Shown in pieces: positions 18,155 through 31,094 of a stretch of 48,817 nt of DNA. Under the pieces are notes generated by a model, which was given only the letters and a program-made list of their open reading frames with translations, ran no database searches and was not told the origin of the DNA. The DNA is from Chloroflexota bacterium. Lineage in GTDB: Bacteria > Chloroflexota > Limnocylindria > Limnocylindrales > CSP1-4. Numbering within the stretch: the stretch's first letter is position 1; every line of letters starts with the position of its first letter. A program made the translations under genes and the position numbers. The stretch spans positions 1 through 48,817 of the forward strand of contig JAJYNJ010000057.1 of assembly GCA_021786385.1 (NCBI GenBank), read 5' to 3'.

Positions 18155-18205
18155 CGCGAACGGGCACGGGTCGTTCGGCGAGCGCAGCGCCGGTGCGCGT
18201 CAGCC
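18149..18205. terminator. Hairpin between the metal importer operon and the microcompartment operon
   Basis: GGCTGACGCG (18149-18158) pairs perfectly with CGCGTCAGCC (18196-18205) across 37 bases. Both flanking stop codons (permease at 18152-18154, BMC-P at 18200-18202) fall inside the stem, so it may terminate both convergent operons. No T-run is seen. Confidence 0.4.
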
Positions 18206-18472
18206 CGGCCGCGTGATCGCGTCGATGATCCCGACGACCAGCGTGCGGATCGGGGCCGGGGTGACGCCCACGATCTGGCGGGCCGAGTTCCCTTCGTCGA
18301 GCAACAGGACCGTCTCGCCCGCCCCAGCGCCGACCGTGTCGACCGCGATCAGGTAGCCGCCCGCGGGTGCGCCGTCGGGTTCCAGCAGGTCGCAGAGGAG
18401 GAGCCGCCGGCCGTCGAAGACCGGCGCGTTGATCGTGGAGACGACGGTGCCGACGACCCGGCCGATCTTCAC
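18200..18472 (-). CDS. BMC-P shell pentamer (EutN/CcmL family), last gene of the operon
   Basis: The 90-residue protein begins MKIGRVVGTVVSTINAP. It contains the EutN/CcmL beta-barrel pattern: LLLCDLLEPDG, then YLIAVDTVGAGAGETVLLLDEGNSAR, then a hydrophobic C-terminal strand VVGIIDAI. Pentamers of this family cap the vertices of microcompartment shells. Its start overlaps the end of the preceding BMC-P gene by four bases. It is one of three different BMC-P genes in the locus. Confidence 0.95.
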   Translation of the reverse strand: MKIGRVVGTVVSTINAPVFDGRRLLLCDLLEPDGAPAGGYLIAVDTVGAGAGETVLLLDEGNSARQIVGVTPAPIRTLVVGIIDAITRPG

Positions 18473-18756
18473 GCCGCGCCTCCGTGCCCGAGCGGTTCCA
18501 CGGTATCGACGATGCCCACGATCGCATGATCGACCGGCACGAACGGCTCGGGCAGCGCCTGGGCCGCCTCGCGCGCCGCGACGAAGTAGACGAGCTCGCC
18601 CGGCCCCGCCATGTGCACCGCGTCGGCCGCCACCAGCGGTTGGCCGCTCGGCTGCTGCGCGCGATCGAGCGGCTGGATGATCAGGAGCTTGATCCCCTCG
18701 AGGCCGGGCGACTTGACGGTCGCCACGACGGTGCCGATCACGCGCGCGAGCTGCAT
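18469..18756 (-). CDS. BMC-P shell pentamer (EutN/CcmL family)
   Basis: The 95-residue EutN/CcmL protein starts MQLARVIGTVVATVK and ends with DHAIVGIVDTVE. The middle loop is longer and more divergent than in its two siblings (AAREAAQALPEPFVP replaces the usual GxSAR turn), so it is not a simple duplicate. It lies between BMC-T and another BMC-P gene with a 6-base gap and a 4-base overlap. Confidence 0.93.
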   Translation of the reverse strand: MQLARVIGTVVATVKSPGLEGIKLLIIQPLDRAQQPSGQPLVAADAVHMAGPGELVYFVAAREAAQALPEPFVPVDHAIVGIVDTVEPLGHGGAA

Positions 18757-18762
18757 GCCGGC

Positions 18763-19455
18763 TCAGGCCCCCTTCCCCGGCTCGCGCGAGCTTGCCGGCC
18801 CCGCGGCGCCCGCACCGCCGCTCGGCGCCGCCTCCGACCCGGCCAGCCGGCGCACGCGCTCGCGGAAGCGCCCGTCCGCCTCGAGGTTCTCGCGCATCTC
18901 GCCGTGCAGCTGGGCGATCACCCGCTGCACCGTGCCGCTCGTCGTCGCGATCCGCGCCGTGCCGATCTCCAGCGCGGCCTCCACCTCCGCCACCGGGCCG
19001 TCGAAGAGCAGGTACCCCTTGCCGCCCAGGCCGTCGGCGAGGCGCAGCTCGAGCAGGCGCACGCGCGCGCCCTTCACCCCGGCGTCGGCGGCATCGATGA
19101 TCGACGCCACCGTGGGCGTCTCGATGACGCCGAGCGCCTCCCCCGTCCCGGTGCGGCGCCGCCCGCCGATCGCGGCGGTCACGTCGGGATGGACGTTGGG
19201 CAGGAAGACCTCGTCGAGCAGCGCGCCCGCGCCGGCCGCGCGGCCGGCGGCCATCGCCTCCTCGACGTCGGCCACCGCGCCGCCGACGAGCACGAGGTAC
19301 TTGCCGGGGTGCACCGTCCCGGCGCGGAGCACCTCGATCGGAGCGCGCTTCGCCATCGCGTCGCCGGCCGCGATGCCGACCGCGATCGAGTCGAACTCGA
19401 GGAGCCCAAGCGCGGGCTGCACGGCGGCCGCCGGATCCGGATCGGGGCGAGCCAT
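18763..19455 (-). CDS. BMC-T tandem-domain shell trimer
   Basis: The 230-residue protein contains two fused BMC folds. The first starts ALGLLEFDSIAVGIAAGDAMAKRAP and the second ALGVIETPTVASIIDAADAGVKGA. Each has the following strand with a glycine-rich pore turn (HPGKYLVLVGG and GGKGYLLFDG). The C-terminus is an Ala/Gly/Glu-rich tail. It resembles single-layer BMC-T1-type proteins such as those of the Haliangium shell. It follows the aldehyde dehydrogenase gene by one base and is surely co-translated with it. Confidence 0.95.
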   Translation of the reverse strand: MARPDPDPAAAVQPALGLLEFDSIAVGIAAGDAMAKRAPIEVLRAGTVHPGKYLVLVGGAVADVEEAMAAGRAAGAGALLDEVFLPNVHPDVTAAIGGRRRTGTGEALGVIETPTVASIIDAADAGVKGARVRLLELRLADGLGGKGYLLFDGPVAEVEAALEIGTARIATTSGTVQRVIAQLHGEMRENLEADGRFRERVRRLAGSEAAPSGGAGAAGPASSREPGKGA

Positions 19456-19456
19456 C

Positions 19457-20923
19457 TCAGACGATCCGCAGCGAGCCGACGACGGTGATGCGGCGCTCGC
19501 GCGAGAAGGTGCGCGGTCGCGTCAACCCATCGCCCGTCGGCGTCGCGATCGAGAACGAGCTGAAGCCCTCGCCGCCCTCGCCGAGCCCCGCGAAGTTCGG
19601 GCCGTTGGCGACGAAGATGCTGCAGTTGAGCGCCCGCGCCATGCGCGTGATCGTCTCGACGTTCGTGGAATGGATCGAGGCAGTGTGGCGGAAGCCGTGC
19701 TCGGCGCGCACCGCGAGCTCGATCGCCTGGTCGACCGTGCCGACCCGCACGATCGGCAGGACCGGCAGCATCTGCTCGGTCCAGACCAGGCTGTGGTCGC
19801 GGGAGACCTCGGCGATCGCCAGGCGCACGTCGCGATCCACGGAGACGCCGATCTCGGCGAGGATCTTCGCCGCGTCCTGTCCGATCCAGCGCGGGTTGAT
19901 GACGCCGTGCTTGCCGGGCGCGCCAAGCTCCGTGAAGATAACCCGTTCGAGCCGGCGCAGCTCGTGCTCCTTGAGCAGGTAGGCGCCGTGCTGCGTCATG
20001 GCCCGCACGAGCCGATCGGCGACCGAGTCGACGACGATCACCTCTTTCTCGTCGGTGCAGACGAGGTTGTTGTCGAAGGAGGCGCCGCGCACGATGTCGC
20101 GTGCGGCCCGTTCGACGTCCGCGGTCTGGTCGACGACCACCGGCGGGTTGCCGGGGCCGGCGGCGACCGCGCGCTTGTCGGTCTTCAACGCCTCGCGCAC
20201 CACGCCCGGGCCGCCCGTGACGAGCAGCAGCCGCACCTCGGGGTGGTTCATCAGGGCCCGCGCGCTCTCGATGGTCGGCTCGGCGACCGCGGTGACGAGA
20301 TCGGCCGGTCCGCCCGCGGCGACGATCGCGCGGTTGATGAGCCGGACCGCCTCGGCCGAGCAGCGCTTCGCGTTGGGGTGCACGTTGAAGACGACCGCGT
20401 TGCCCGCCGAGACGATGCTGATCGTGTTGTTGATGACGGTGGAGGTCGGGTTGGTGACCGGTGTGATCGCCGCGACCACGCCGAACGGGGCGAACTCGGT
20501 CACCATCATCCCCTGGTCGCCCGTGACCGCCTCGACCTCGAGGTCCTCGGGGCCCGGCGCCTTGGTCGTGACGACGCGGTTCTTGACGATCTTGTCCTCG
20601 ACGCGGCCGATCTTCGTCTCCTGGTGGGCGAGCAGCGCCAGCCGCTCCCCGGCGTCGAGCATGGCGCGCCGCACCGACTCGATGATCGCGTAGCGGCGAT
20701 CGAGCCCCATCGTGCGGTACGTGCGGAACGCCCGGCCGGCCGCCGCCACCGCGTCGTCCACGGAGGCGTGGATCCCATCGCCGAGAGCGGTCGCCGCGGC
20801 CACCTCGGCCGCGGCGCGCATCGCGGCCGCCGGCCGAGCGTCGCCCGCCTCGGCCATACGGCGTCGCACGCGCTCGATGATCGCCTGGATCTCCGCTTCG
20901 CTCAGTCCGCCCGGTTCGCTCAT
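19457..20923 (-). CDS. CoA-acylating aldehyde dehydrogenase, microcompartment cargo (EutE/PduP-like)
   Basis: The 488-residue enzyme should convert acetaldehyde (or a similar aldehyde), NAD+ and CoA to acyl-CoA. Catalytic Cys289 lies in SFDNNLVCTDEKEV, a motif shared by EutE and PduP and not by hydrolytic aldehyde dehydrogenases. ITPVTNPTSTVINNT is the typical Rossmann-side segment. Residues 7-25 form an extra amphipathic helix (LSEAEIQAIIERVRRRM) followed by an Ala-rich linker, the hallmark of an encapsulation peptide. It lies inside the shell-gene cluster. With the DeoC-type aldolase in the same operon, acetaldehyde is the likely substrate. Confidence 0.95.
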   Translation of the reverse strand: MSEPGGLSEAEIQAIIERVRRRMAEAGDARPAAAMRAAAEVAAATALGDGIHASVDDAVAAAGRAFRTYRTMGLDRRYAIIESVRRAMLDAGERLALLAHQETKIGRVEDKIVKNRVVTTKAPGPEDLEVEAVTGDQGMMVTEFAPFGVVAAITPVTNPTSTVINNTISIVSAGNAVVFNVHPNAKRCSAEAVRLINRAIVAAGGPADLVTAVAEPTIESARALMNHPEVRLLLVTGGPGVVREALKTDKRAVAAGPGNPPVVVDQTADVERAARDIVRGASFDNNLVCTDEKEVIVVDSVADRLVRAMTQHGAYLLKEHELRRLERVIFTELGAPGKHGVINPRWIGQDAAKILAEIGVSVDRDVRLAIAEVSRDHSLVWTEQMLPVLPIVRVGTVDQAIELAVRAEHGFRHTASIHSTNVETITRMARALNCSIFVANGPNFAGLGEGGEGFSSFSIATPTGDGLTRPRTFSRERRITVVGSLRIV

Positions 20924-20987
20924 CGCTCCGCACTCACTCGGGCGCGTACCTGCCCGCGGCCTGGGGCGCGGCGGGCAGGCAGGCGCC

Positions 20988-21275
20988 TCACTTGTGGTAG
21001 ACCTCGCGCCCGCCGACCTCCCAGGTGTCCACGATGGCCATGATCACCGCGTCGCAGGGCCGATCGCGCGTCACCTCGGTCTGCCGGGCGGAGCTGCCCG
21101 TGGCATAGAGGACGACCTCGCCCACCCCGGCCCCCACCGCGTCGACGGCGACGACATAGCCGCCGCCAGGGTGGTTCTCGGTGTCGAGCTGGCGCACGAC
21201 CAGGAGCTTCCAGCCCTCCATCAGCGGCTCTTTGCGGCTGGCGACCACCGTCCCGGCCACACGACCCAACAGCAT
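20988..21275 (-). CDS. BMC-P shell pentamer (EutN/CcmL family)
   Basis: The 95-residue protein starts [17 protein letters not shown]. It carries [31 protein letters not shown], a close match to the EutN/CcmL core, and ends with [11 protein letters not shown] strong GGAGGAG site precedes the ATG at 21275. It lies between the BMC-H and aldehyde dehydrogenase genes and is the most canonical of the three pentamer genes. Confidence 0.95.
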
Positions 21276-21361
21276 CCGCGCTCCTCCGTCCAGCGGCCTC
21301 TCCGGCCGCCGGCGCCCGGGGACCCGGCACGCCGGGGCCTGGGCGCCGGTCGCTCAGGGCC

Positions 21362-21670
21362 CTAGCCTTCGCCGATCTCGGCCTTGGCCTGCTCGGTGCG
21401 CCCCAGCGGCAGCACGAGGTCGACGTTGACGTGCGGCCGCGCGATCACGTGGCTGGCCACCACTTCGCCCACGTTCTGGGCATTGCGCACGCCGGCTTCG
21501 ACCGCCGCTTTCACCGCGGCGACGTCGCCACGCACGATCGCCGTCACGTAGCCGCCACCGGTCTTCTCGTAGCTCACGAGCTCGACCTTGGCGGCCTTCA
21601 CCATCGCGTCGGCTGCCTCGACCATCGCCGCGAACCCGCGGGCCTCGATCATCCCAAGTGCTTCAGCCAT
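21362..21670 (-). CDS. BMC-H shell hexamer
   Basis: The 102-residue protein begins [23 protein letters not shown]. It has the standard single-BMC fold, with the pore loop KTGGG at residues 36-40, the edge motif [15 protein letters not shown] and a short acidic C-terminus. Start is ATG at 21670 with GGAGAGG upstream; the longer open frame before it has no homology. Hexamers of this type tile the facets of the shell. It is the only BMC-H gene in the window. Confidence 0.96.
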
Positions 21671-21708
21671 CGATCCTCTCCTGTCCGCTCCCCGCCGCTC
21701 CGACGGGG

Positions 21709-22338
21709 CTATGCCGTTGCCGCACGTCCGGTGAGCCCCTCGACCGCCGCGAGGGCGGCCCGCCAACCGACGTCGATGTCCCGTTCCTCACCGCCCAGAT
21801 AGACGCGGCCCATCGAGCCGAACGCGCGCACCTCGAGGATGTTGATCCGCGCCGCCTTCTCGGCCTCGTTGGCCGCGAGGGCCGCGTACGCCGCGGGCTC
21901 GAGCTCGAGCACGTAGAGCGTCTGGCCCGCGAGGAGCATCTCCCCGTGGCGCGTGCGGTTGATGAGCTGCGCCTGGTGGTCGTCGATGCGGCGGATGATC
22001 TGGCTCGAGAGGACCCGCGGCTTGATGCGGTCTGCTTCCTGCAGCCCCACGGCCTGCAGGATCGCCGCCCCCGCCGCGCGGACCTCCGCCTGCGAGGGCG
22101 CGTGCACCTCGAGCAGGCCGTAGTAGCGCTCGATGATCTGCATCCCGGGCTTCACCGCGGTCGCCTTGAGCGCGACGTCGGTGAGGCGGTTGATCTCGAT
22201 GCCAGGCGAGACCTCGACGTAGAGGGAGGCGTCGCCTGCGAGCGGCAGGAAGCCCTGCGCGACGGTCCCCAGGAACGCCGCGTACTGCGCCTGGAGGCTG
22301 TCGAGAAAGACGTAGGCGCGAAGGTCAATCGTGCTCAC
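21709..22338 (-). CDS. BMC-T shell trimer of the stacking (CsoS1D/double-layer) type
   Basis: The 209-residue protein is recognised from its closeness to the divergent Haliangium-type tandem BMC proteins that begin with an LRxYxFLDxLQ motif. It has [19 protein letters not shown] in the first domain, an [12 protein letters not shown] pore-side segment, and [19 protein letters not shown] in the second. Members of this group form two stacked trimers with gated pores for larger metabolites. It starts with GTG at 22338, inside the end of deoC (14-base overlap), so translation is coupled to the aldolase. Confidence 0.85.
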
Positions 22339-23197
22339 CGGCCTGGCGCTCCCCTCCTGTCACGATCCTGACACCGGCAGACGCCCCGATGCGGGTCGCG
22401 CCCGCGGCGATCATCTCCCGCACGTCCTCGGCCGTGCGGATCCCTCCGGCGGCCTTGACGCCCATCGTCGGCCCCACCGTCTCGCGCATCAGCGCCACAT
22501 CGAAGACGGTGGCGCCGCCCGAGGCAAACCCGGTGGACGTCTTCACGTAGTCGGCGCGCGCGCGCTGCGCGAGGCGGGACGCGATCACCTTCTCCTCGTC
22601 GGTCAAGAGGGCCGCTTCGATGATCACCTTGTTGATCGCGCCCGCCTCGTGGCAGGCGTCCGAGACCCGCGCGATGTCCTGGCGCACCAGCTCGCGCATG
22701 CCGCTCTTGAGGGCGCCGATGTTGATCACCATGTCGATCTCGCGGGCGCCGTCGCGCAGGGCCCGGCGCGCCTCGGCCGCCTTGATGTCGCTCGTCGTCG
22801 CCCCGAACGGGAAGGCGATCACGGAGGCCACGGCGACCGGGGTGCCGCGCAGCTGCTCGGCCGCGCGGCGCACCCACGTGGGGTTGATGCAGACCGCGGC
22901 GAAGCCGTACTCCTTGGCCTCGCTGCAGAGCCGGTCGATCTCCGCGGCGGTCGCATCCGGCCGCAGCAGGGTATGGTCGATGTAGCGCGCGAGGTCGCGC
23001 GGGACGTCCGCGCCGTTGCCCTGGTAGGTGATGCGGGACGCGCCGCCCGCCACCACGCTGCGCACCTTGTCCGGGCAATGCGCCGCGCACGAGCCCAGGC
23101 AGTCCCGGCAGCCGTCTCCCGAGGTCCCCGCCAGCGCGCCCAGCACCTCCCGGGTGATCGTCTCGATCAGTTCGTTGCGCGCGTCGCCGTCGCTCAT
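22325..23197 (-). CDS. deoC: Deoxyribose-phosphate aldolase, microcompartment cargo with Cys-rich leader
   Basis: The 290-residue protein cleaves 2-deoxyribose-5-phosphate to acetaldehyde and glyceraldehyde-3-phosphate. The class I aldolase site is intact: the Schiff-base lysine in DYVKTSTGF, the proton-relay lysine in [10 protein letters not shown] and the aspartate in [11 protein letters not shown]. Before the barrel (from about residue 65) come two additions. Residues 5-23 are an amphipathic helix ([19 protein letters not shown]) like an encapsulation peptide. Then Cys30, Cys33, Cys37 and Cys41 form a C-x2-C-x3-C-x3-C cluster that could bind metal or an Fe-S centre. Its ATG overlaps the RpiB-like stop (ATGA). 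Confidence 0.95.
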
Positions 23198-23775
23198 GCT
23201 CGCTCTCTCAGATAGCGTCGCTCGATCGCGGTGATCTGCTCGACGCGGGCCGCATGGCGGCCGGGGCCCCACGGCGTGCCCAGCCACGCGGCCACGATCT
23301 CGAGCGCCAAACCCGTCCCGATGAGCCGGCCGCCGAGCGTGAGCACGTTGGCGTGGTTGTGTTCGCGGCTGTTGCGGGCGCTCGTCACGTCGTAACAGAG
23401 GGCGGCGCGCACCCCTGGGACCTTGTTCGCGACCATGCACGAGCCGATCCCGGCCCCGTCGACGATGATCCCCCAGCGGCACGTGCCGTCCGCGACGAGG
23501 CGGGCCACAGCGTGCGCGACGTCCGGATAATCGACGGGGTCCGGGGTCGTGGTGCCACAGTCGTGAACCGTATATCCCTCCTGCTCGAGTCGCTGAGCGA
23601 TCAGCTGCTTCAGCTCGAACCCGCCGTGGTCGGCGCCGACCGCGATCGCGCCCGCGCTCGCGGTCGCAGCGTCCGGCGCGGGACCGCCCGTCGCCGCCGG
23701 TCCCGCCGGGGCATCGTACACCGCCTCGACCACCCGCCGGACCAGGTCTCGAACCTCGCCCTCGGACACCGTCAT
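23194..23775 (-). CDS. RpiB/LacA-family sugar-phosphate isomerase, microcompartment cargo, altered active site
   Basis: The 193-residue protein has a 40-residue N-terminal extension whose first part is an amphipathic helix ([18 protein letters not shown]), a likely encapsulation peptide, and then an RpiB fold. [11 protein letters not shown] supplies the Asp49/His50 pair, [10 protein letters not shown] the phosphate-side His, and ITAIERRY the C-terminus. In classical RpiB the base that moves the proton is Cys in CGTGxG; here the equivalent reads DGAGIGS, with Asp106 replacing Cys and Ala108 replacing Thr. Ribose-5-phosphate isomerisation is therefore uncertain. Start is ATG at 23775 with GGGAGG upstream. 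Confidence 0.9.
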
Positions 23776-23838
23776 CCATCGCCTCCCGCAGGCGCCACGG
23801 TACCCGATGGACCGGGCGGCTGCCGGGCGCCGCGCGAG

Positions 23839-24723
23839 CTACTCACTCCGGATGGCCCCGAACGAGAGGCCCCGGACCAGGTACCGTTGCAGCAGGAACG
23901 CGATGATGACCACGGGCAATGCCCCGACCGCGGCCATCGCAGCGATGTCGCCCCACAGCACGTAGTGCGACTCCATCATGGTCGGCAGAATGAACGGCAG
24001 CGTGGTGACCCGGCCGCGCGACAGCAGCACAGCGATGCTGAACTCGTTCCAGTTGAAGATGAACGCCAGCAGCGCGGTCGCGACCAGTGCCGGACGGACG
24101 TTGGGCAACACGATGTCGACGAACGCGCGCAGGCGGCTGGCCCCGTTCACCAACGCCGACTCCTCCAGGTCGACCGGCAGGTCCTCGAAGAATCCTTTCA
24201 TGACCCACGCGATGAACGGGATCGTGAACGTCAGGTACTGCACGATCAGCGCGATGTAGGTGTCCACCAGTCCGAGCGCTGACCAGAACAAGAACATCGG
24301 AATACCGATCGCCACCGGCGGCATGAAGAGCAAGCTGAGGATGAAGAACGAGAGGTTCGTTCCCCCAATTCGAAACCGCGCCAGACTGTACGCGGCGAAT
24401 GTGCCGAGCACCATGCCGATCGCGGTCGCGCTCACCGCGACGACCCCGCTGTCGACGAGCCCTTTCAGGCCACCCCAGTTGAACAAGGCGTCCGTGTAGT
24501 TCTGGAAATAGAGGCGGTCGGGGATGAAGACGGGAGGGCTGGTCAGCCACTCGCTGGGCGGCTTCACCGACGTCACCAGCATCCAGTAGATCGGGAACAA
24601 GAAGAAGACGGACCCGACCGCGACCCCGACCACCGACGCCAACAGACCACCCCGGCCACCTGTCACTGGCGTGGGCACCGCGCGCCCAGAAGGGAACGGC
24701 GAGTGGGCGGCGGTCGATGTCAT
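23839..24723 (-). CDS. Carbohydrate ABC transporter permease (MalG-like)
   Basis: The 294-residue membrane protein has six helices and the MalG-type EAA loop ([27 protein letters not shown]) that contacts the ATPase. It overlaps the end of the partner permease gene by four bases. The 63-base gap to the RpiB-like gene downstream holds no obvious terminator, so importer and microcompartment genes may share a transcript. The DNA of the importer genes looks less GC-rich than the flanking shell genes. Confidence 0.92.
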
Positions 24724-25655
24724 ACTGCGGCCTCCGCGACCGGCACGTCAGCGGCCGGACGGCCCACCGGACGTTCCATGTACCGCAGGATCACACGGGC
24801 CAACACGATCACGATGATCACGCTGACATAGGACATCGCGGCGCTGTAGCCGACACTGAAGTACCGGAACCCCTGCACGTAGTTGTAGAAGGCGAGACTC
24901 TCTGTGGCCGATCCGGGTCCACCCGCCGTCAACACATAGATGATGTCGAAGACTTTGAACGCGCCGATGAGCCGCAGAATGACCGTGATGGCGATGACTC
25001 GTCGCAGCAGCGGCAATGTCTGGTAGCGAAGGATCTGCCAACTGGACGACCCGTCGACGCGAGCCGCCTCAAAGACGGACGCGGGCAATGCGTGCAGACC
25101 GGCCAGCAGCAGCAACGTGACAAACGGGGTCCACTGCCAGAAGTCCACCAGGAGCAGCGACGGCAGGGCCAGGCGTGGATCGGCCGTCCAGCTCAGGAGC
25201 GGCAAGTGCAAGAGACCCAAGAAGTAGTTCAACGGCCCTGAGCTGTAATCGAAGAGCGATCGCCACTGGAACGACGCGACCGACGATGACAGGATGCTCG
25301 GTATCAGCAGCAAGGTGGCGATGAACTGTTGGTAGCGCGGCAGTCGGTACAAGGCGAGCGCCAGCGCTAGGCCAACCCCGAGCTGAACCGTGACCACCGA
25401 CAGAGCGAACGCGGCGGCCACACCGAGGCTGCTCCAGAACAGGTTGTCTTGCAGCAGCTGCGCGTAGTTGGCTAATCCGACAAACCGCGGCGGAACCAAC
25501 GACAATAACTGCTGGTCTGTGAAGGACAGCCGCAGCGAATAGAGCAACGGAAAGACGCTGAGCACGATCAGGATGATGGTCGCTGGCGCTACGGTCAGGA
25601 GGGCGAAACGCCGCCCTCCTGACCAGCGCGATGGCCGACGTCTGGTCGCCATCAT
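24720..25655 (-). CDS. Carbohydrate ABC transporter permease (MalF/UgpA-like)
   Basis: The 311-residue membrane protein has six helices and the EAA loop EAARVDGSSSWQILRYQTLPLL. It shows the TDQQLL and YNYVQGFRYFSVGYSAAMSYV segments common to sugar permeases of the MalF/UgpA type. It pairs with the MalG-like permease whose start overlaps its stop. It follows the substrate-binding protein gene by 46 bases. Confidence 0.92.
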   Translation of the reverse strand: MMATRRRPSRWSGGRRFALLTVAPATIILIVLSVFPLLYSLRLSFTDQQLLSLVPPRFVGLANYAQLLQDNLFWSSLGVAAAFALSVVTVQLGVGLALALALYRLPRYQQFIATLLLIPSILSSSVASFQWRSLFDYSSGPLNYFLGLLHLPLLSWTADPRLALPSLLLVDFWQWTPFVTLLLLAGLHALPASVFEAARVDGSSSWQILRYQTLPLLRRVIAITVILRLIGAFKVFDIIYVLTAGGPGSATESLAFYNYVQGFRYFSVGYSAAMSYVSVIIVIVLARVILRYMERPVGRPAADVPVAEAAV

Positions 25656-25701: not shown

Positions 25702-27111
25702 TCAGTACGTAACGCCGGCCGCGTGGAACGCGTTGACCCAGTCGGAGTAGGCCTTCACCTGATTGTCCTGGCCCAGTGATGCCGTGATGCTGTCCCACTC
25801 GTTGGCAGCCTGCGTCAGCGCCTGGGAAGGAGTTAGGCTTCCGGCCAGAGCCTCGTTCACGAACAGATCCAGAATGTCCAGGTAACGCGGCGCGCCAGGG
25901 ATCGACAGTTCTGGATATCCCGTCGTGAGACAGGTCTTGATTGCGCCAACGTAACTCTGCGCCTGCGCTGCCGGCATCGACGGGTTGCCCAGATGGTCCT
26001 TGACCTTCGAAGCGTCCAGGTGGGACTGACGGAAAGGATCTTCGCCGCACTTCGGATCGTACACGTACTTGATGCTGACATCAGCACTGTCCATGTACTG
26101 GATGACCTTGTAGGCGTTCTGCTGGTTCTTGGAGAACGCCGAGACGGCCATGACCCGCGAGTACGGCATGTAGTTGCGCACCGGGCAGGGAGCGTAGGCG
26201 TTCTTGCCCACCACCTTGCTCTGGCTGGGGTCCTCGGCCTTCAGCGCCAGGTCGTCCCACTGCACGACCATCGCCGTCGAGCCGTTCAGATATGCCTCGT
26301 TGAGCTCCTGGTATCCGATCTGCAGGATGTTCGGAGGCGCGTACTGCTTCAGATTCACGAGCATTTGCAGCGCCTGCACGCCCTGGTCCGTGTTGATCGC
26401 GGGCTTCATGTCCGCCGTGAACCACTTGCCGCCGAGCGCCGCAAAGATATTCATGAACCAAGCGTAGCAGAAACCACGCTGTGCAAGGAACGCGTTGCCG
26501 TATTGCGTCGGCGGCTTGTGCAGCTCCTTGGCGATGTTCAGGAAGTCGTCCCAAGTCTGGGGTGGCTGCGAGATACCCGCAGCACTGAAGATGTCCGTCC
26601 GATACGCGATCTGCAGGATGTCGCCGTCATACATGGCCGCATACAGCTTCCCGTTCCTTCTCAGGTTGGGATCGCGGTAGGCCGGCAGCACATCGGTCAA
26701 ATTGAAGTCGGACTCGTTGCCCAGTTCCGAGAGTGGGGCGAGGAACCCATTGCTGACGAAGTCGCCGAGCATCTGCGGAGGGAAGACCAACACGTCATAG
26801 ACGCTGCTCCGCGTCACCATCTCGGCGACGATCTTCTCGTACTGCCCGACGAAGGGCAGCCCGATGATGTTCGTGGTCGCCCCGAACTTGGCCTTCATGT
26901 TGGGGTTGAACCACTGGAACGGGTTGGCGTTCTGGCCCTCGTCGATCTCGACGGCGACTGTGCCAGATGCACTGGCCGCGGCGCTGGACGCGTTAGGTGT
27001 CGCCGAGCAGGCCTCAAGGAACGTCGTGACGGCGCCGCCCATGGCTAGGGCGGCCCCTGCCTTGGCGCTCGTGGAAAGAAAGCGACGTCGACTGATCGGA
27101 CCAACTTGCAT
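25702..27111 (-). CDS. Sugar ABC transporter substrate-binding lipoprotein, Tat-exported
   Basis: The 469-residue family 1 extracellular solute-binding protein has a twin-arginine signal (SRRRFLSTSAK) ending in a lipobox-like LEAC, so it is probably folded before export and lipid-anchored at about Cys35. The rest shows the two-lobe pattern of the MalE/UgpB group, including YAAMYDGDILQIAYRTDIF and PPQTWDDFLNIA. Given its location with a deoxyribokinase-like gene and deoC, I infer a pentose or deoxyribose (or deoxynucleoside) ligand, though MalE-type proteins usually bind larger glycosides. Start is at 27111. Confidence 0.9.
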   Translation of the reverse strand: MQVGPISRRRFLSTSAKAGAALAMGGAVTTFLEACSATPNASSAAASASGTVAVEIDEGQNANPFQWFNPNMKAKFGATTNIIGLPFVGQYEKIVAEMVTRSSVYDVLVFPPQMLGDFVSNGFLAPLSELGNESDFNLTDVLPAYRDPNLRRNGKLYAAMYDGDILQIAYRTDIFSAAGISQPPQTWDDFLNIAKELHKPPTQYGNAFLAQRGFCYAWFMNIFAALGGKWFTADMKPAINTDQGVQALQMLVNLKQYAPPNILQIGYQELNEAYLNGSTAMVVQWDDLALKAEDPSQSKVVGKNAYAPCPVRNYMPYSRVMAVSAFSKNQQNAYKVIQYMDSADVSIKYVYDPKCGEDPFRQSHLDASKVKDHLGNPSMPAAQAQSYVGAIKTCLTTGYPELSIPGAPRYLDILDLFVNEALAGSLTPSQALTQAANEWDSITASLGQDNQVKAYSDWVNAFHAAGVTY

Positions 27112-27136: not shown

Positions 27137-28231
27137 TCAGGCTATGCGGGTCCCGCCGTCCGCACCCGGCGCGAAGAAGTGAAGACTCTCCGGCCTCAAC
27201 TCCAAATGCACCTCCTCTCCTTCGTTCAGGCGGAACTCCGGCTCGGCCTCAACCGTCAGCCGATCTCCACCGATCTGAAACTGATAGATGACGCGCGAGC
27301 CCTCGGGCGCCGCAAGGTAAACGCTGGCCGCGATGCGATCGTCGCCGCCCTCGCGATGGATGCGAATGGCGCGTGGCCGCACCCCCACGACCACATCGGG
27401 TAGCGTGACGGCAGCAAGCGCAGTGCGTGCTGTCTCGGTAACCGGGAGCCAGTGGCCGAGGACGCGGACGCCCAGGCCTCTCTCGCCGCGCGCAAGACTG
27501 GCGGGCAGCAGGTTCATCTGGGGCTCACCGATGAAGCGGGCGACGAATGTGTTGCTGGGGCGGTAGTAGACGTCGTCGGGGGTGCCGAGTTGCTGGATGA
27601 CGCCGTCCTTCATGATCGCAATGAGATCGGCCATGGCCAGCGCGTCCAGCTGGTCGTGGCTGACCACGATCGTCGTCGCCCCCAGCATCTTCTGCAGACG
27701 ACGGATCTCGGCCCGCATCGTGCTCCGCAGCACGGCGTCGAGATTGGAGATTGGCTCGTCGAGCAGGAAGAGCCGAGGCCGCTGAATGATCGCTCTCGCC
27801 AGGGCGACCCGCTGCTGCTGACCGCCCGAGATCTGTTGCACGGCACGATCGAGCAGACTATCGATTTCAAGGAGGCGAGCGACCTCCGTCACGCGGGCCT
27901 CTCGTTCGGTGCGTGGCACGCCCCGCACCTTCAGTGGGTAGCCGATGTTGTCGCGGACCGACATCTGCGGATAGAGGGCGTATCCCTGGAACATCACGCC
28001 CACATGTCGGTCCTTCGGTTCCAGGCGCGAGATCTCGTCGTCGTCGAGCCAGATCTCGCCGCTGTCCGGTCGCTCGAGCCCAGCCACGAGTCGCAACGTC
28101 GTGGTCTTCCCGCTGCCGGAAGGACCGAGCAAGCAGAGCAACGTTCCATCAGGAATCTCGAGCGAAAGGTCCCGCACTGCTGCCACGGGCCCAAACGACC
28201 GCGAGAGATGCTTCAGTGTGACGCGGGCCAC
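27137..28231 (-). CDS. Sugar ABC transporter ATPase (MsmK/UgpC/MalK type)
   Basis: The 364-residue protein has Walker A GPSGSGKT (residues 36-43), Q-loop Gln82, signature ISGGQQQR (134-141), Walker B LFLLDEP (154-160) and the H-loop in SHDQLDA. A C-terminal TOBE regulatory domain includes VGVRPRAIRI. Start is GTG at 28231 with GAGGGG eight bases upstream. The 29-bp palindromic operator ends 25 bases before this start, so this is likely the first gene of the importer-microcompartment transcript. Confidence 0.94.
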   Translation of the reverse strand: MARVTLKHLSRSFGPVAAVRDLSLEIPDGTLLCLLGPSGSGKTTTLRLVAGLERPDSGEIWLDDDEISRLEPKDRHVGVMFQGYALYPQMSVRDNIGYPLKVRGVPRTEREARVTEVARLLEIDSLLDRAVQQISGGQQQRVALARAIIQRPRLFLLDEPISNLDAVLRSTMRAEIRRLQKMLGATTIVVSHDQLDALAMADLIAIMKDGVIQQLGTPDDVYYRPSNTFVARFIGEPQMNLLPASLARGERGLGVRVLGHWLPVTETARTALAAVTLPDVVVGVRPRAIRIHREGGDDRIAASVYLAAPEGSRVIYQFQIGGDRLTVEAEPEFRLNEGEEVHLELRPESLHFFAPGADGGTRIA

Positions 28232-28256: not shown

Positions 28257-28285
28257 GTGAGATCGATATCCAATATCGATTTCAC
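28257..28285. promoter_or_regulatory. 29-bp palindromic operator, probable LacI-family site
   Basis: The left arm GTGAGATCGATAT (28257-28269) and right arm ATATCGATTTCAC (28273-28285) are inverted repeats with one mismatch around a 3-base centre (CCA). It is AT-rich in a GC-rich context and lies 25 bases before the importer ATPase start, between that gene and the kinase gene. A LacI-family regulator is encoded about 1.4 kb upstream. LacI sites are shorter (about 16-20 bp) with a central CG, so this one is longer than usual; the regulator assignment is inferred from linkage. Confidence 0.7.
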
Positions 28286-28326
28286 TTGGCCATCCTATCC
28301 CCGCCGTCAAGCAGCGCCGCGCTACC

Positions 28327-29265
28327 TCATGCGGCCTCCTGACGCGTGGCGAGGAATTCGTCTAGCTCCGCACGCGTAGGGAACGAGACCTGGGTGCCGA
28401 TCCGCGTGACCGATAGCGCCGCGGCGGCGGAGGCATCGCGCACGGCGTCCGCGAGCGGACGCCCCTCCCCCAGGAGGACGGCGAGCGCGCCGATGAACTC
28501 GTCGCCGGCGCCGGTGGGATCGACCGCCTCCACCGGGAACGACGGTACGTGCACGCCCGTCTCGGCATCGACGAGTACCGCACCACGGCTACCGAGCGTG
28601 ACGATGACGCTCCGCGGCCCCTTCACCAGCAGGGCGCGGGCGGCTTCCATGGCGTCGCTGACACTCTGGGCGGAGCGGCCGGTGATCATCTGCACCTCGA
28701 CCTCGTTCGGCACACAGATGTCGGTGAGCGCCAGCAGCTCGTCGGGCAACGGCGCGGCCGGTGCCGGGTTCAGGATCGTCACGACCCGGGCGGATCGGGC
28801 GATGCGGAACGCCTCCAGAGTGGTTGCGACGGGCACCTCGAGCTGGCAGCAGAGGATGTCCGCCTGCTGGATCTGGGCCTCGGCCGCCCGCACGTCGTCC
28901 GGGCTGAGGCCGTAATTGGCACCCGGCACGATCACGATGACGTTCTCCGCCCGGTCGTCCACCAGGATCGGCGCGACACCGGAGAAGCGCTCCGGGTCGG
29001 TCAGCACGAACCGCGTGTCGATGCCGTTGGCGCGGAAGTTCTCCAGCGTGCCATCGCCGAAGACGTCCCGGCCCACCTTCGCCACCATCGAGACCTGCGC
29101 GCCGAGCCTGGCCGCTGCGGTCGCCTGGTTCGCACCTTTCCCACCGTATCCCATATGAAACGAATGGCCGACGAGGGTCTCGCCCAGCGTCGGCAGACGC
29201 GGGACCCTGGAGATCAGATCGATCATGCAGCTGCCGACGACGCAGATGCGCGGCTGACTCGCCAT
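28327..29265 (-). CDS. deoK: PfkB-family kinase, deoxyribokinase/ribokinase type
   Basis: The 312-residue kinase has GGKGANQA (41-48), VPNEVEVQ, and the anion-hole/catalytic motif DPTGAGDEF with Asp255. It ends with SVTRIGTQVSFPT. In ribokinase the N-terminal motif is GSxNAD, whose Asn contacts the ribose 2-hydroxyl; here it reads GSCMID, as in deoxyribokinase, where Met occupies that position. The SGVAPI and LQLEV-like (CQLEV) segments also recall DeoK. I infer phosphorylation of 2-deoxyribose, feeding the linked aldolase. Start ATG 29265 has GAGGTGA upstream; a GTG at 29277 is possible. Glu in GAGDEF replaces a usual small residue or Thr. Confidence 0.85.
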   Translation of the reverse strand: MASQPRICVVGSCMIDLISRVPRLPTLGETLVGHSFHMGYGGKGANQATAAARLGAQVSMVAKVGRDVFGDGTLENFRANGIDTRFVLTDPERFSGVAPILVDDRAENVIVIVPGANYGLSPDDVRAAEAQIQQADILCCQLEVPVATTLEAFRIARSARVVTILNPAPAAPLPDELLALTDICVPNEVEVQMITGRSAQSVSDAMEAARALLVKGPRSVIVTLGSRGAVLVDAETGVHVPSFPVEAVDPTGAGDEFIGALAVLLGEGRPLADAVRDASAAAALSVTRIGTQVSFPTRAELDEFLATRQEAA

Positions 29266-29315
29266 GAGACGCGTCACCTCATGTGGAGACCGATGGGCCC
29301 GCCGGGCGAAACCCT

Positions 29316-29660
29316 TCAGGCGCTGGCTGTGGGACCCGGAACGACGACGTGCTCATCGGTGTACAGGTGGATCCGGACCTCTGCGAACTGGTCGGCATCC
29401 GCACCCGCGGCCGCCCCCACCTCGCTCGCGAAGGCGGCCTCCATGGCGTCGATGCTCTCCCACCACATCTCCGCGGTGCCGTCGTAGAGCGGTTCCTCGC
29501 CGCTGCCGACCGGTTGGCGGGACGTGGCGATGTTGATACGGTATCCGAGCAGGCCGGGCAGCTGCGCCGAGATCCGGGTGTGATCCTCCAACCAGCGCCG
29601 GGCGAATTCCTCCCGTGTCAGATGCGGCTTCCGCTTCAGCAACGCGACCAGCTTGACCAT
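29316..29660 (-). CDS. EthD-domain small protein (dimeric alpha-beta barrel)
   Basis: The 114-residue protein starts MVKLVALLKRKPHLTREEFARRWLEDHTR, the usual opening of EthD-like dimeric alpha-beta barrels. It continues with LPGLLGYRIN and an acidic helix before a final strand RIHLYTDEH. EthD proteins lack an agreed biochemical role. Sugar mutarotases of the RhaM type share the fold, and the location between a sugar kinase and its LacI regulator makes a sugar-anomer role conceivable. Start is ATG at 29660 with GGAGG seven bases upstream. Confidence 0.8.
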   Translation of the reverse strand: MVKLVALLKRKPHLTREEFARRWLEDHTRISAQLPGLLGYRINIATSRQPVGSGEEPLYDGTAEMWWESIDAMEAAFASEVGAAAGADADQFAEVRIHLYTDEHVVVPGPTASA

Positions 29661-29689
29661 CCTGTTCCTCCACAGATGTGCATCGAGGA

Positions 29690-30844
29690 TCAAAGACCCG
29701 ACTGCCCATCGGCGGCGGGCGTCGGCGCCCCCGCCGGATATGCTGGACCCGTGCCCTGGCGCGCACTCACACCCCCGGACGGCGACGCCGCGCCCGCGGA
29801 GGCCGGCTCCTGCGCCGGCGCCGCGCAGGAGCCACGCACCGTCAGGCGAGTCTCCAGCACGATCTTCCGGGGGGCGGCCTCGCCTGTGTTCTCCATGCGG
29901 AACTTGAGCAGCCGCATCGCCAGCACGCCCTGCTCGGTGCTCGCGCGCGAGACAACCGTGAGCGGCGGGTGCGTCAGTTCGGCGAGCGCGAGGTCGTCGA
30001 AGCCCACGAACGACATCTCGTGCGGGATACGGATGCCCAGGTTGTGCATCGCACGCAAGGCGCCGATCGACATGAGGTTGTTGGAGACGAAGAGCGCCGT
30101 GGGGGCGGGCCGCACCGCGAGCAGGCGCAGGGCGGCCTGGTAACCGCCATCCTCCCGGAAATCCGCCACCTGGAGGTACCGTTCGTCCAGCTCGAGGCCG
30201 CGGGCGCGCAGCCCCTCGCCGAAGCCCTCGTACCGCTCACGGCCGGGTGTGGTGTCCAGGGGGCCGGAGATCATGGCGATCCGCGTGTGGCCCAGCGAGA
30301 CCAGATACTCCGCCGCCTGGGCGGCCCCATTGACGTTGTCCACCAGGACCACGTCGAACTCCTCGGCCTCGATGCGCCGATCGATCAGGACGACGGGCAC
30401 CCGGCGGGCGCGCAGCATCAGCGGCGCGTCCGACCATTCGGCCGCCGGCGCCATGAGGATCCCGTCGACCTGCTTCTGCAGGAGGATGTTGACGACCGCA
30501 CGCTCGCGGTCCACGTTCTCGTCCGTGTTACAGAGCAGGAGGCTGTACTCGCCTGCCCGCATCACCGACTCGACGCCCTTGACGACGTCGGCAAAGAACG
30601 GGTTCGAGATATCGGGGACAAGGACACCGATGGTGCGCGTCGAGCCGGACTTGAGGCTGCGCGCCAGCTGGTTCGGGCGAAACGCCAGCGCCTCGATCGC
30701 TTCGTCGATGCGGCGCGCTTCCCGGACGCGGCTGCCGTTGAGGTAGCGCGAGACGGTGGCCGTCGCGACGCCGGCCCGGGCGGCGACATCCTTGATCGTC
30801 GCCGGTTTCTGCGGGGCTGGCGGGCTGACTGGTACCGATTTCAC
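29690..30844 (-). CDS. LacI-family transcriptional regulator
   Basis: The 384-residue protein has the LacI HTH (ATIKDVAARAGVATATVSRYLNG) and hinge helix (RPNQLARSL). The periplasmic-binding-like domain follows, with TIGVLVPDISNPFFADVVKGVE and a typical C-terminal VGFDDLALAEL. The extra 30-residue Ala/Gly/Pro tail is unusual. GTG at 30844 is the plausible start, about 15 residues before the HTH; the frame is open to 30946. It is positioned as the first gene of the sugar cluster and is the obvious candidate to bind the 29-bp palindrome at 28257-28285. Confidence 0.92.
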   Translation of the reverse strand: MKSVPVSPPAPQKPATIKDVAARAGVATATVSRYLNGSRVREARRIDEAIEALAFRPNQLARSLKSGSTRTIGVLVPDISNPFFADVVKGVESVMRAGEYSLLLCNTDENVDRERAVVNILLQKQVDGILMAPAAEWSDAPLMLRARRVPVVLIDRRIEAEEFDVVLVDNVNGAAQAAEYLVSLGHTRIAMISGPLDTTPGRERYEGFGEGLRARGLELDERYLQVADFREDGGYQAALRLLAVRPAPTALFVSNNLMSIGALRAMHNLGIRIPHEMSFVGFDDLALAELTHPPLTVVSRASTEQGVLAMRLLKFRMENTGEAAPRKIVLETRLTVRGSCAAPAQEPASAGAASPSGGVSARQGTGPAYPAGAPTPAADGQSGL

Positions 30845-30866
30845 TCGCTTGATCGTAGCGGAGCGG

Positions 30867-31094
30867 TCAAGGTCCTGCAGGGCGATTCGGCGCGCCTTTT
30901 CCGACGCGCGGCGCGCCGGTCCGCACGACGAACGTGACCCGCGCATGGGGCGCGATCGGCGTCACGCTGAACGTTCCGCCCACGGCGGAGGCGGCGTGGG
31001 CGACGGCATGGAACACGGCCGCTTGGCCCGCGACGAGCGCCACGATGAGAAGCCCGCCGCGCGCTGCCGATGGTCCCCCGCGACCCGCCGTCAC
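30867..31094 (-). CDS. Doubtful small ORF with one hydrophobic segment
   Basis: A 75-codon frame in the 297-base gap between the LacI start and the end of the S9 peptidase gene. It has one hydrophobic stretch (LLIVALVAGQAAVFHAVAHAA) after a basic N-terminus, then a strand-like TFSVTPIAPHARVTFVVR. No family is recognised and no ribosome-binding site is evident. It may be a real exported peptide or simply an open frame in GC-rich DNA. Confidence 0.2.
   Translation of the reverse strand: MTAGRGGPSAARGGLLIVALVAGQAAVFHAVAHAASAVGGTFSVTPIAPHARVTFVVRTGAPRVGKGAPNRPAGP

What the first reader, a model, noticed from the sequence alone, without database searches (positions are those of the whole stretch)
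28257..28285. 29-bp near-perfect palindrome in front of the importer-microcompartment operon
Arms of 13 bp (GTGAGATCGATAT and its complement) around a 3-base centre, one mismatch, in an otherwise GC-rich region and 25 bases from the start codon of the first importer gene. The LacI-type regulator upstream is the natural ligand, but the site is longer than a normal LacI operator and might hold two overlapping sites.
Basis: seen in the sequence. Interest (0 to 1): 0.6.

Follow-up and report, generated by a model that had tools for sequence, protein, structure and literature searches.

The report
Double LacI operator before sugar importer
The palindrome is very probably the docking site of the neighbouring sugar-sensing repressor: two overlapping LacI-type operators set 13 bases apart at the start of a sugar-importer operon, a known but poorly understood arrangement that matters mainly as a clean, conserved example.

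Summary
The palindrome exists as described: 28257-28285, 13-bp arms, one mismatch, unique in its genome even at 3 mismatches. It ends 25 bases before the GTG start of a MalK-type ATPase gene, on the minus strand. It recurs in two relatives at the same place between a ribokinase-type gene and that ATPase gene. In other genomes with an orthologue of the upstream LacI-type regulator it keeps company with the regulator even when the importer is a different one. A scan of 84,980 species genomes also found it beside LacI genes in Bacillus, Peptococcaceae and Lachnospiraceae. Aligned, all copies show two CG-centred LacI operators (TGAAATC|GATTTCA) whose centres lie exactly 13 bp apart. This 13-bp overlap is a published peak in LacI-family intersite distances (PMC4052901), known from E. 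coli gntKU. A half-operator lies on the regulator's own start codon. So this is a new member of a known kind. Side observation: a TTGAC-N8-TANNNT element, with an abnormally short spacer, precedes these operators.

The parts
28257..28285 (.). Palindrome = pair of overlapping LacI-type operators (double operator)
28271..28284 (-). Operator A, TGAAATCGATATTG, CG centre at 28277-28278; perfect outer half-site TGnAAnCG
28258..28271 (-). Operator B, GGATATCGATCTCA, CG centre at 28264-28265, 13 bp from that of A
28292..28310 (-). Promoter-like element TTGAC-N8-TAGGAT, conserved at the same distance from the operator in relatives; predicted start of transcription at the first bases of the palindrome
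   Evidence: no transcription start mapped
29690..30844 (-). LacI-family regulator gene (start GTG at 30844; the longer ORF to 30946 is less likely)
   Evidence: Pfam LacI + Peripla_BP_3; orthologues aligned from this start
30830..30843 (-). Probable autoregulatory site TGAAATCGGTACCA on the regulator's own start codon, behind TTGAC-N8-TACGAT (30852-30870)
29316..29693 (-). EthD-family small protein, member of the conserved cassette
28327..29277 (-). Ribokinase-family (PfkB) sugar kinase
   Evidence: PF00294; TIGR02152 366.9 bits against a cut-off of 299.65
27137..28231 (-). MalK-type ABC importer ATPase, first gene behind the palindrome
25702..27111 (-). Extracellular solute-binding protein of the importer
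   Evidence: PF01547
23839..25655 (-). Two inner-membrane permeases (24720-25655 and 23839-24723)
   Evidence: PF00528 twice

Best explanation
The palindrome is a double operator for the LacI-family repressor encoded just upstream (29690-30844, minus strand). It holds two 14-bp LacI sites of the form TGAAATC|GATTTCA with CG centres 13 bp apart. The outer half-sites are near-perfect; the inner half-sites overlap and are weak in this genome. It sits directly behind a -10-like box, so that transcription of malK-sbp-permease-permease should begin at or next to it. Without its sugar ligand the repressor binds and blocks RNA polymerase; with the ligand (probably a pentose such as ribose or deoxyribose, or its phosphate) it lets go and the importer is made. 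A weaker single site on the repressor's own start codon gives autoregulation. Shown by computation: the site, its conservation, its linkage to the repressor and the 13-bp architecture. Inferred: binding, direction of control (repression), ligand, and whether one or two dimers sit on it at once.
For: (1) Same palindrome at the same place in G065 and G007. (2) The LacI orthologue is found in 8 of 107 family genomes. Seven of them carry a recognisable 13-bp double site at the importer or regulator promoter: G000, G007, G065, G064, G068, G072 and G073; G010 has the same regulator-promoter sequence as G073. (3) In G068 the regulator and kinase (74% and 68% identical) sit next to a different importer, and the palindrome is there. 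An orthologous importer promoter in G065 and G069, without this regulator beside it, has TGTAACCGAT arms instead, changed symmetrically in both arms. (4) Exact hits elsewhere adjoin LacI genes in L060 (Bacillus taeanensis), L069 (Peptococcaceae) and L070 (Lachnospiraceae). (5) Spacers of the LacI-linked hits resemble inner half-sites TTCNGAA (29 of 42 positions against 16 of 60 in unlinked hits; Mann-Whitney p 0.006, or 0.012 without orthologues). (6) Both CG centres and flanks are invariant in 12 aligned copies. (7) 13 bp is a published peak of LacI intersite distances (PMC4052901).
Against: No binding or transcription data. Inner half-sites of this copy match only 3 of 6 consensus positions. 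In the regulator promoters of G000, G065 and G007 only one site is recognisable. Ten of the 16 collection hits have no demonstrated LacI neighbour and look like chance or other elements. Structural data quoted in PMC4052901 make simultaneous binding of two dimers 13 bp apart hard to picture.
Confidence: 0.87

Rival explanations
1. One LacI-family dimer with widely spaced half-sites (as CytR can do) reads the palindrome as a single 29-bp operator.
For: Outer half-sites are far better than inner ones in G000, G007 and G068. CytR binds inverted octamers 10-13 bp apart (PMC3454398).
Against: The GAT/ATC on the inner side of each CG is kept in nearly all copies, which a half-site reading does not need. 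LacI-linked copies in Firmicutes and in G072/G073 have good inner half-sites. The exact 13-bp offset matches the known overlapping-site class.
Confidence: 0.12
2. The palindrome acts in RNA, as a hairpin in the 5' leader of the importer mRNA (attenuator, stability element or translational switch).
For: It folds at -10.7 kcal/mol, z -3.3, and lies just before the ribosome-binding site.
Against: No run of U follows. The arm mismatch is kept rather than repaired in three genomes, and the G064 copy folds poorly (-5.6 kcal/mol, z -1.5) while keeping both CG centres. The same motif overlaps start codons of the regulator gene.
Confidence: 0.04
3. The palindrome binds another regulator, not the linked LacI protein.
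For: No binding data exist; local linkage is not proof.
Against: Half-site TGnAAnCG is typical of LacI-family sites, LacI genes are neighbours in several phyla, and the site travels with the LacI orthologue between different importers.
Confidence: 0.05

Closest known systems
Overlapping LacI-family sites about 13 bp apart (Ravcheev et al. 2014, PMC4052901; 110 operons; E. coli gntKU/GntR as tested example)
   Same: Two even, CG-centred palindromes, centres 13 bp apart, upstream of a sugar-uptake operon, near the regulator gene
   Different: Here in a Chloroflexota genome with its own recognition sequence; inner half-sites degenerate so that the pair looks like one long palindrome; not tested by experiment
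RbsR-type ribose repressors (NCBIfam NF007743, NF047341)
   Same: Best-scoring named LacI models; linked ribokinase-family kinase and sugar importer
   Different: Scores far below the curated cut-offs (264.6 against 531; 233.7 against 382); importer has a MalK-type ATPase and an SBP_bac_1 binding protein, not RbsABC
CytR of E. coli (LacI family, spaced half-sites, nucleoside and deo genes)
   Same: LacI-family protein reading half-sites up to 10-13 bp apart
   Different: CytR needs CRP partners and weak octamers; here the inner GAT/ATC of each CG-centred site is conserved
lac operator O1
   Same: Operator at the start of transcription, repressor gene nearby, half-site TGTGAG-like
   Different: Single odd palindrome in lac; here two even sites overlapping by 1 bp

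Membership tests
LacI-family operator | Even palindrome with a CG pair at its centre | tested here: met
   Two CG centres, both invariant in 12 copies; definition from PMC4052901
LacI-family operator | Linked LacI-family regulator gene | tested here: met
   29690-30844 here; also G007, G064, G065, G068, G072, G073, L060, L069, L070
LacI-family operator | Position about 30-140 bp before the start codon | tested here: met
   Centre of the palindrome 40 bp before GTG 28231
LacI-family operator | Specific binding by the regulator, relieved by a ligand | not testable with these tools
   Needs purified protein
13-bp overlapping double LacI site | Two sites with centres 13 bp apart, conserved in orthologues | tested here: met
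13-bp overlapping double LacI site | Each site complete on its own (both half-sites good) | tested here: inconclusive
   Inner halves weak in G000 (3 of 6 positions), good in G065, L060, L069 and L070
CytR-type spaced operator | Two half-sites with variable spacing | tested here: not met
   The offset is 13 bp in all 12 aligned double sites. Caveat: 7 of them were found with a fixed spacing; the G064, G072 and G073 sites and the regulator sites were found by regulator homology instead
Intrinsic terminator / RNA hairpin | GC-rich stem followed by a run of T, stem pairing kept by covariation | tested here: not met
   No terminator call there; pairing not kept in G064
SPU-type microcompartment locus (neighbour) | DeoC-type aldolase, RpiB, aldehyde dehydrogenase and shell proteins | tested here: met
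   definition from PMC4207490; RpiB recognised by eye in the translation, not by a profile

The most novel reading that the evidence does not exclude
The LacI-controlled promoters of this bacterial family form a distinct promoter class, TTGAC-N8-TANNNT, with the -35-like box one helical turn closer to the -10 box than the ordinary TTGAC-N17/18-TANNNT promoters of the same genomes. Such promoters would need an unknown activator, a remodelled sigma factor or another reading of the TTGAC box, and would come paired with operators at +1.
Probability: 0.25. Interest if true: 0.55.

Novelty: new member of a known kind. Interest (0 to 1): 0.33.

Why it matters
The 13-bp overlap of LacI operators has been listed as a structural puzzle since 2014, because two dimers so close should clash. 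This locus gives a compact, conserved natural set (strong palindromes at importers, weaker versions on regulator start codons, both in several genomes) with which one-dimer and two-dimer models can be told apart. It also shows that the importer cassette and the deoxyribose-phosphate microcompartment are separate modules that happen to be neighbours here. Otherwise the finding is ordinary sugar-operon control.

Tried and rejected
The general inverted-repeat finder missed the palindrome, because its longest exact seed is 8. A sigma-70 consensus scan found no promoter in the region. Genome-wide search for single 14-bp sites with 2 mismatches: 11 places, not evidently a regulon. Search for a degenerate double-site pattern at 2 mismatches: 61 places, mostly coding-like GC-rich strings; only the palindrome stands out, so the predicted regulon is local. 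A half-site inside malK (27862-27869) is not conserved in G065 or G007 and was dropped as an auxiliary operator. Unlinked collection hits (L058, L059, L061-L064, L066, L067, L073) have no LacI gene among the neighbours tested and poor inner half-sites; taken as chance or unrelated. L065 (Burkholderiaceae) has a perfect TTCAGAA spacer but no LacI gene recognised on its short contig; left open. L072 was first counted as unlinked; it is G068 contig C123 and is linked. The protein first labelled PduL (21709-22338) is a CcmP-type shell protein. The claim that G065 lacks the microcompartment was withdrawn: its contig ends inside the rpiB-deoC region.

Full report
OBSERVATION. The stretch 28257-28285 reads GTGAGATCGATATCCAATATCGATTTCAC: 13-bp arms, one mismatch, 3-base centre. 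It lies in the 95-bp gap between a PfkB/ribokinase-family gene (28327-29277, minus) and a MalK-type ATPase gene (27137-28231, minus, GTG start), 25 bases before the latter's start. A search of the whole genome (2.68 Mb, 100 contigs) at up to 3 mismatches finds only this copy, and none for the reversed control. Bare inverted repeats of this size are not rare in this GC-rich window (5 with loop 3 and at most 1 mismatch), but dinucleotide shuffles give 0-1 and never an AT-rich one.

SURROUNDINGS. On the minus strand the order is: LacI-family regulator (29690-30946 as ORF), EthD-family protein, ribokinase-family kinase, palindrome, MalK-type ATPase, solute-binding protein, two permeases, then rpiB, deoC, a CcmP-type shell protein, BMC-H and EutN-type shell proteins, an aldehyde dehydrogenase, a BMC-T shell protein and two further EutN proteins. 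The kinase passes the ribokinase model TIGR02152 (366.9 bits, cut-off 299.65). The regulator is closest to RbsR models but far below their cut-offs. The microcompartment genes match the sugar-phosphate-utilizing (SPU) type described in PMC4207490.

CONSERVATION. In 177 genomes of the class, the palindrome at up to 3 mismatches occurs in the own genome, in G065 (same genus) and in G007 (another genus). In both relatives it is again between kinase and ATPase genes, with the whole LacI-EthD-kinase-importer cassette conserved at 74-92% protein identity. The mismatch between the arms (A in one, G in the other) and the CG centres are kept in all three.

THE PALINDROME FOLLOWS THE REGULATOR. Orthologues of the regulator (E at most 1e-100) occur in 8 of 107 family genomes. 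In G068 the regulator and kinase stand before a different importer, and the gap holds CTGAAATCGATATTGCTAATCGATTTCAG. The orthologous importer promoter in G065 and G069, where no such regulator adjoins, has TGTAACCGAT...ATCGATTACA, changed symmetrically in both arms. In G064 the copy is more diverged but keeps both CG centres 13 bp apart. In G072, G073 and G010 the cassette order is LacI-importer-EthD-kinase, and the double site sits on the regulator promoter. So the site tracks the regulator, not the importer. Microcompartment genes are a separate module: G066 and G070 have rpiB-deoC next to the S9 peptidase gene without the cassette, and G007 has the cassette on another contig, without microcompartment genes beside it. 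All four genomes compared keep a TACCGT box upstream of rpiB, which suggests that the microcompartment genes have their own promoter; read-through from the importer is possible.

OTHER PHYLA. An exact scan of 84,980 species genomes for TGARATCGATN7ATCGATYTCA gave 16 stretches, against about one expected from base counts (my estimate, not a tool result). LacI genes adjoin the site in Bacillus taeanensis (L060, between lacI and a ThuA-family gene), Peptococcaceae (L069, between a PfkB kinase gene and lacI) and Lachnospiraceae (L070, before lacI), besides three Chloroflexi contigs. In linked hits the 7-base spacer resembles the inner halves of two LacI sites (TTCNGAA; 29 of 42 positions) and in unlinked hits it does not (16 of 60; p 0.006, or 0.012 when orthologues are dropped).

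ARCHITECTURE. Twelve aligned copies give TGAAATCGATATCnGAAATCGATnTCA with both CG steps invariant. This is two 14-bp LacI-type sites with centres 13 bp apart, sharing one base. Ravcheev et al. 2014 (PMC4052901) report peaks of LacI intersite distance at 13, 22 and 32 bp, 110 operons with overlapping sites about 13 bp apart, and E. coli gntKU as the tested case; they note that simultaneous binding is hard to reconcile with known structures. The present palindrome belongs to that class. What makes it look like one long palindrome is that its inner half-sites are degenerate while the outer ones are strong.

HOW IT PROBABLY WORKS. A -10-like TAGGAT ends 6 bases before the palindrome, so transcription should begin at its first bases; a bound repressor would block it. 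A site TGAAATCGGTACCA covers the regulator's own start codon (GTG 30844), the same distance behind a TACGAT box, and this is kept in G065 and G007: autoregulation of a probably leaderless mRNA. Binding, repression and ligand are inferred. A pentose or pentose phosphate is the likeliest ligand given the ribokinase-family gene; deoxyribose is possible but nothing here singles it out.

ALTERNATIVES. A hairpin role in RNA is unlikely: no T run, poor folding of the G064 copy, conserved mismatch. A single dimer on widely spaced half-sites, as with CytR (PMC3454398), is not excluded but explains neither the conserved inner GAT/ATC nor the good inner half-sites in other copies.

SIDE OBSERVATION. TTGAC-N8-TANNNT (N9 in one case) precedes every double or single site of this set found by operator or regulator search in the family: importer promoters of G000, G065, G007, G064 and G068, regulator promoters of G000, G065, G007, G064, G068, G072 and G073/G010, and the related palindromes of G065, G069 and G030. 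In 424 kb of DNA the ordinary spacing is 17-19. The own genome has only six N8 places: two LacI genes, this importer, two genes whose translations look like GntR-family regulators, and one zinc-ribbon-like gene. Orthologue-like zinc-ribbon genes in several genomes share the N8 spacing. Over 31 genomes N8 is only mildly commoner than N12 (129 against 90 places; p 0.01), and the reversed control of N8 is as frequent as N8 itself, so genome-wide support is weak while local association is strong. I offer this as a lead, not as part of the verdict.

VERDICT. Real, conserved, and explained: a double LacI operator of a known overlapping kind. New member of a known kind, interest moderate to low.

Noticed in passing
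28292-28310 and 30852-30870 (minus); L038 7503 and 10068; L039 5289 and 7830; L150-L153; L169-L171: TTGAC-N8-TANNNT promoter-like element with a spacer about 10 bp shorter than the ordinary 17-18, in front of all LacI-type operators of this set.
   Followed up: partly
G000 contig C33 63885-63903 (L088, L158): A second LacI gene with the same TTGAC-N8-TANNNT element and two operator-like sites (TGAAACCGCTTTCA, TGGAAGCGGTTTCG) about 21 bp apart, next to a second PfkB kinase gene and an ABC ATPase gene: another spacing class of LacI sites in the same genome.
   Followed up: no
18200-23775 (minus): SPU-type microcompartment locus (rpiB-deoC-CcmP-like-BMC-H-EutN-aldehyde dehydrogenase-BMC-T-EutN-EutN). 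The CcmP-like shell gene is found in 26 of 177 genomes of the class, mostly with the same gene order and without the importer cassette.
   Followed up: partly
about 23800-23805 (minus): Conserved CATCGSGTACCGT box upstream of rpiB in G000, G065, G066 and G070: probable own promoter of the microcompartment genes.
   Followed up: partly
L087, L092, L106, L108, L109: Small zinc-ribbon-like genes (VYQDRTLTCRDCG...) in several genomes of the family share a TTGAC-N8-TATNNT element far upstream of the start codon.
   Followed up: no
L065 282-308 (Burkholderiaceae contig): Perfect double LacI-type site TGAAATCGATTTCAGAAATCGATTTCA before a lipoprotein-like gene, with no LacI gene recognised on the short contig.
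   Followed up: no
29316-29693 (minus): EthD-family small protein kept together with the regulator and kinase in most of the related cassettes (G007, G064, G065, G072, G073, G010) although importers are swapped; absent between regulator and kinase in G068. Possibly a mutarotase-like or ligand-processing protein.
   Followed up: no
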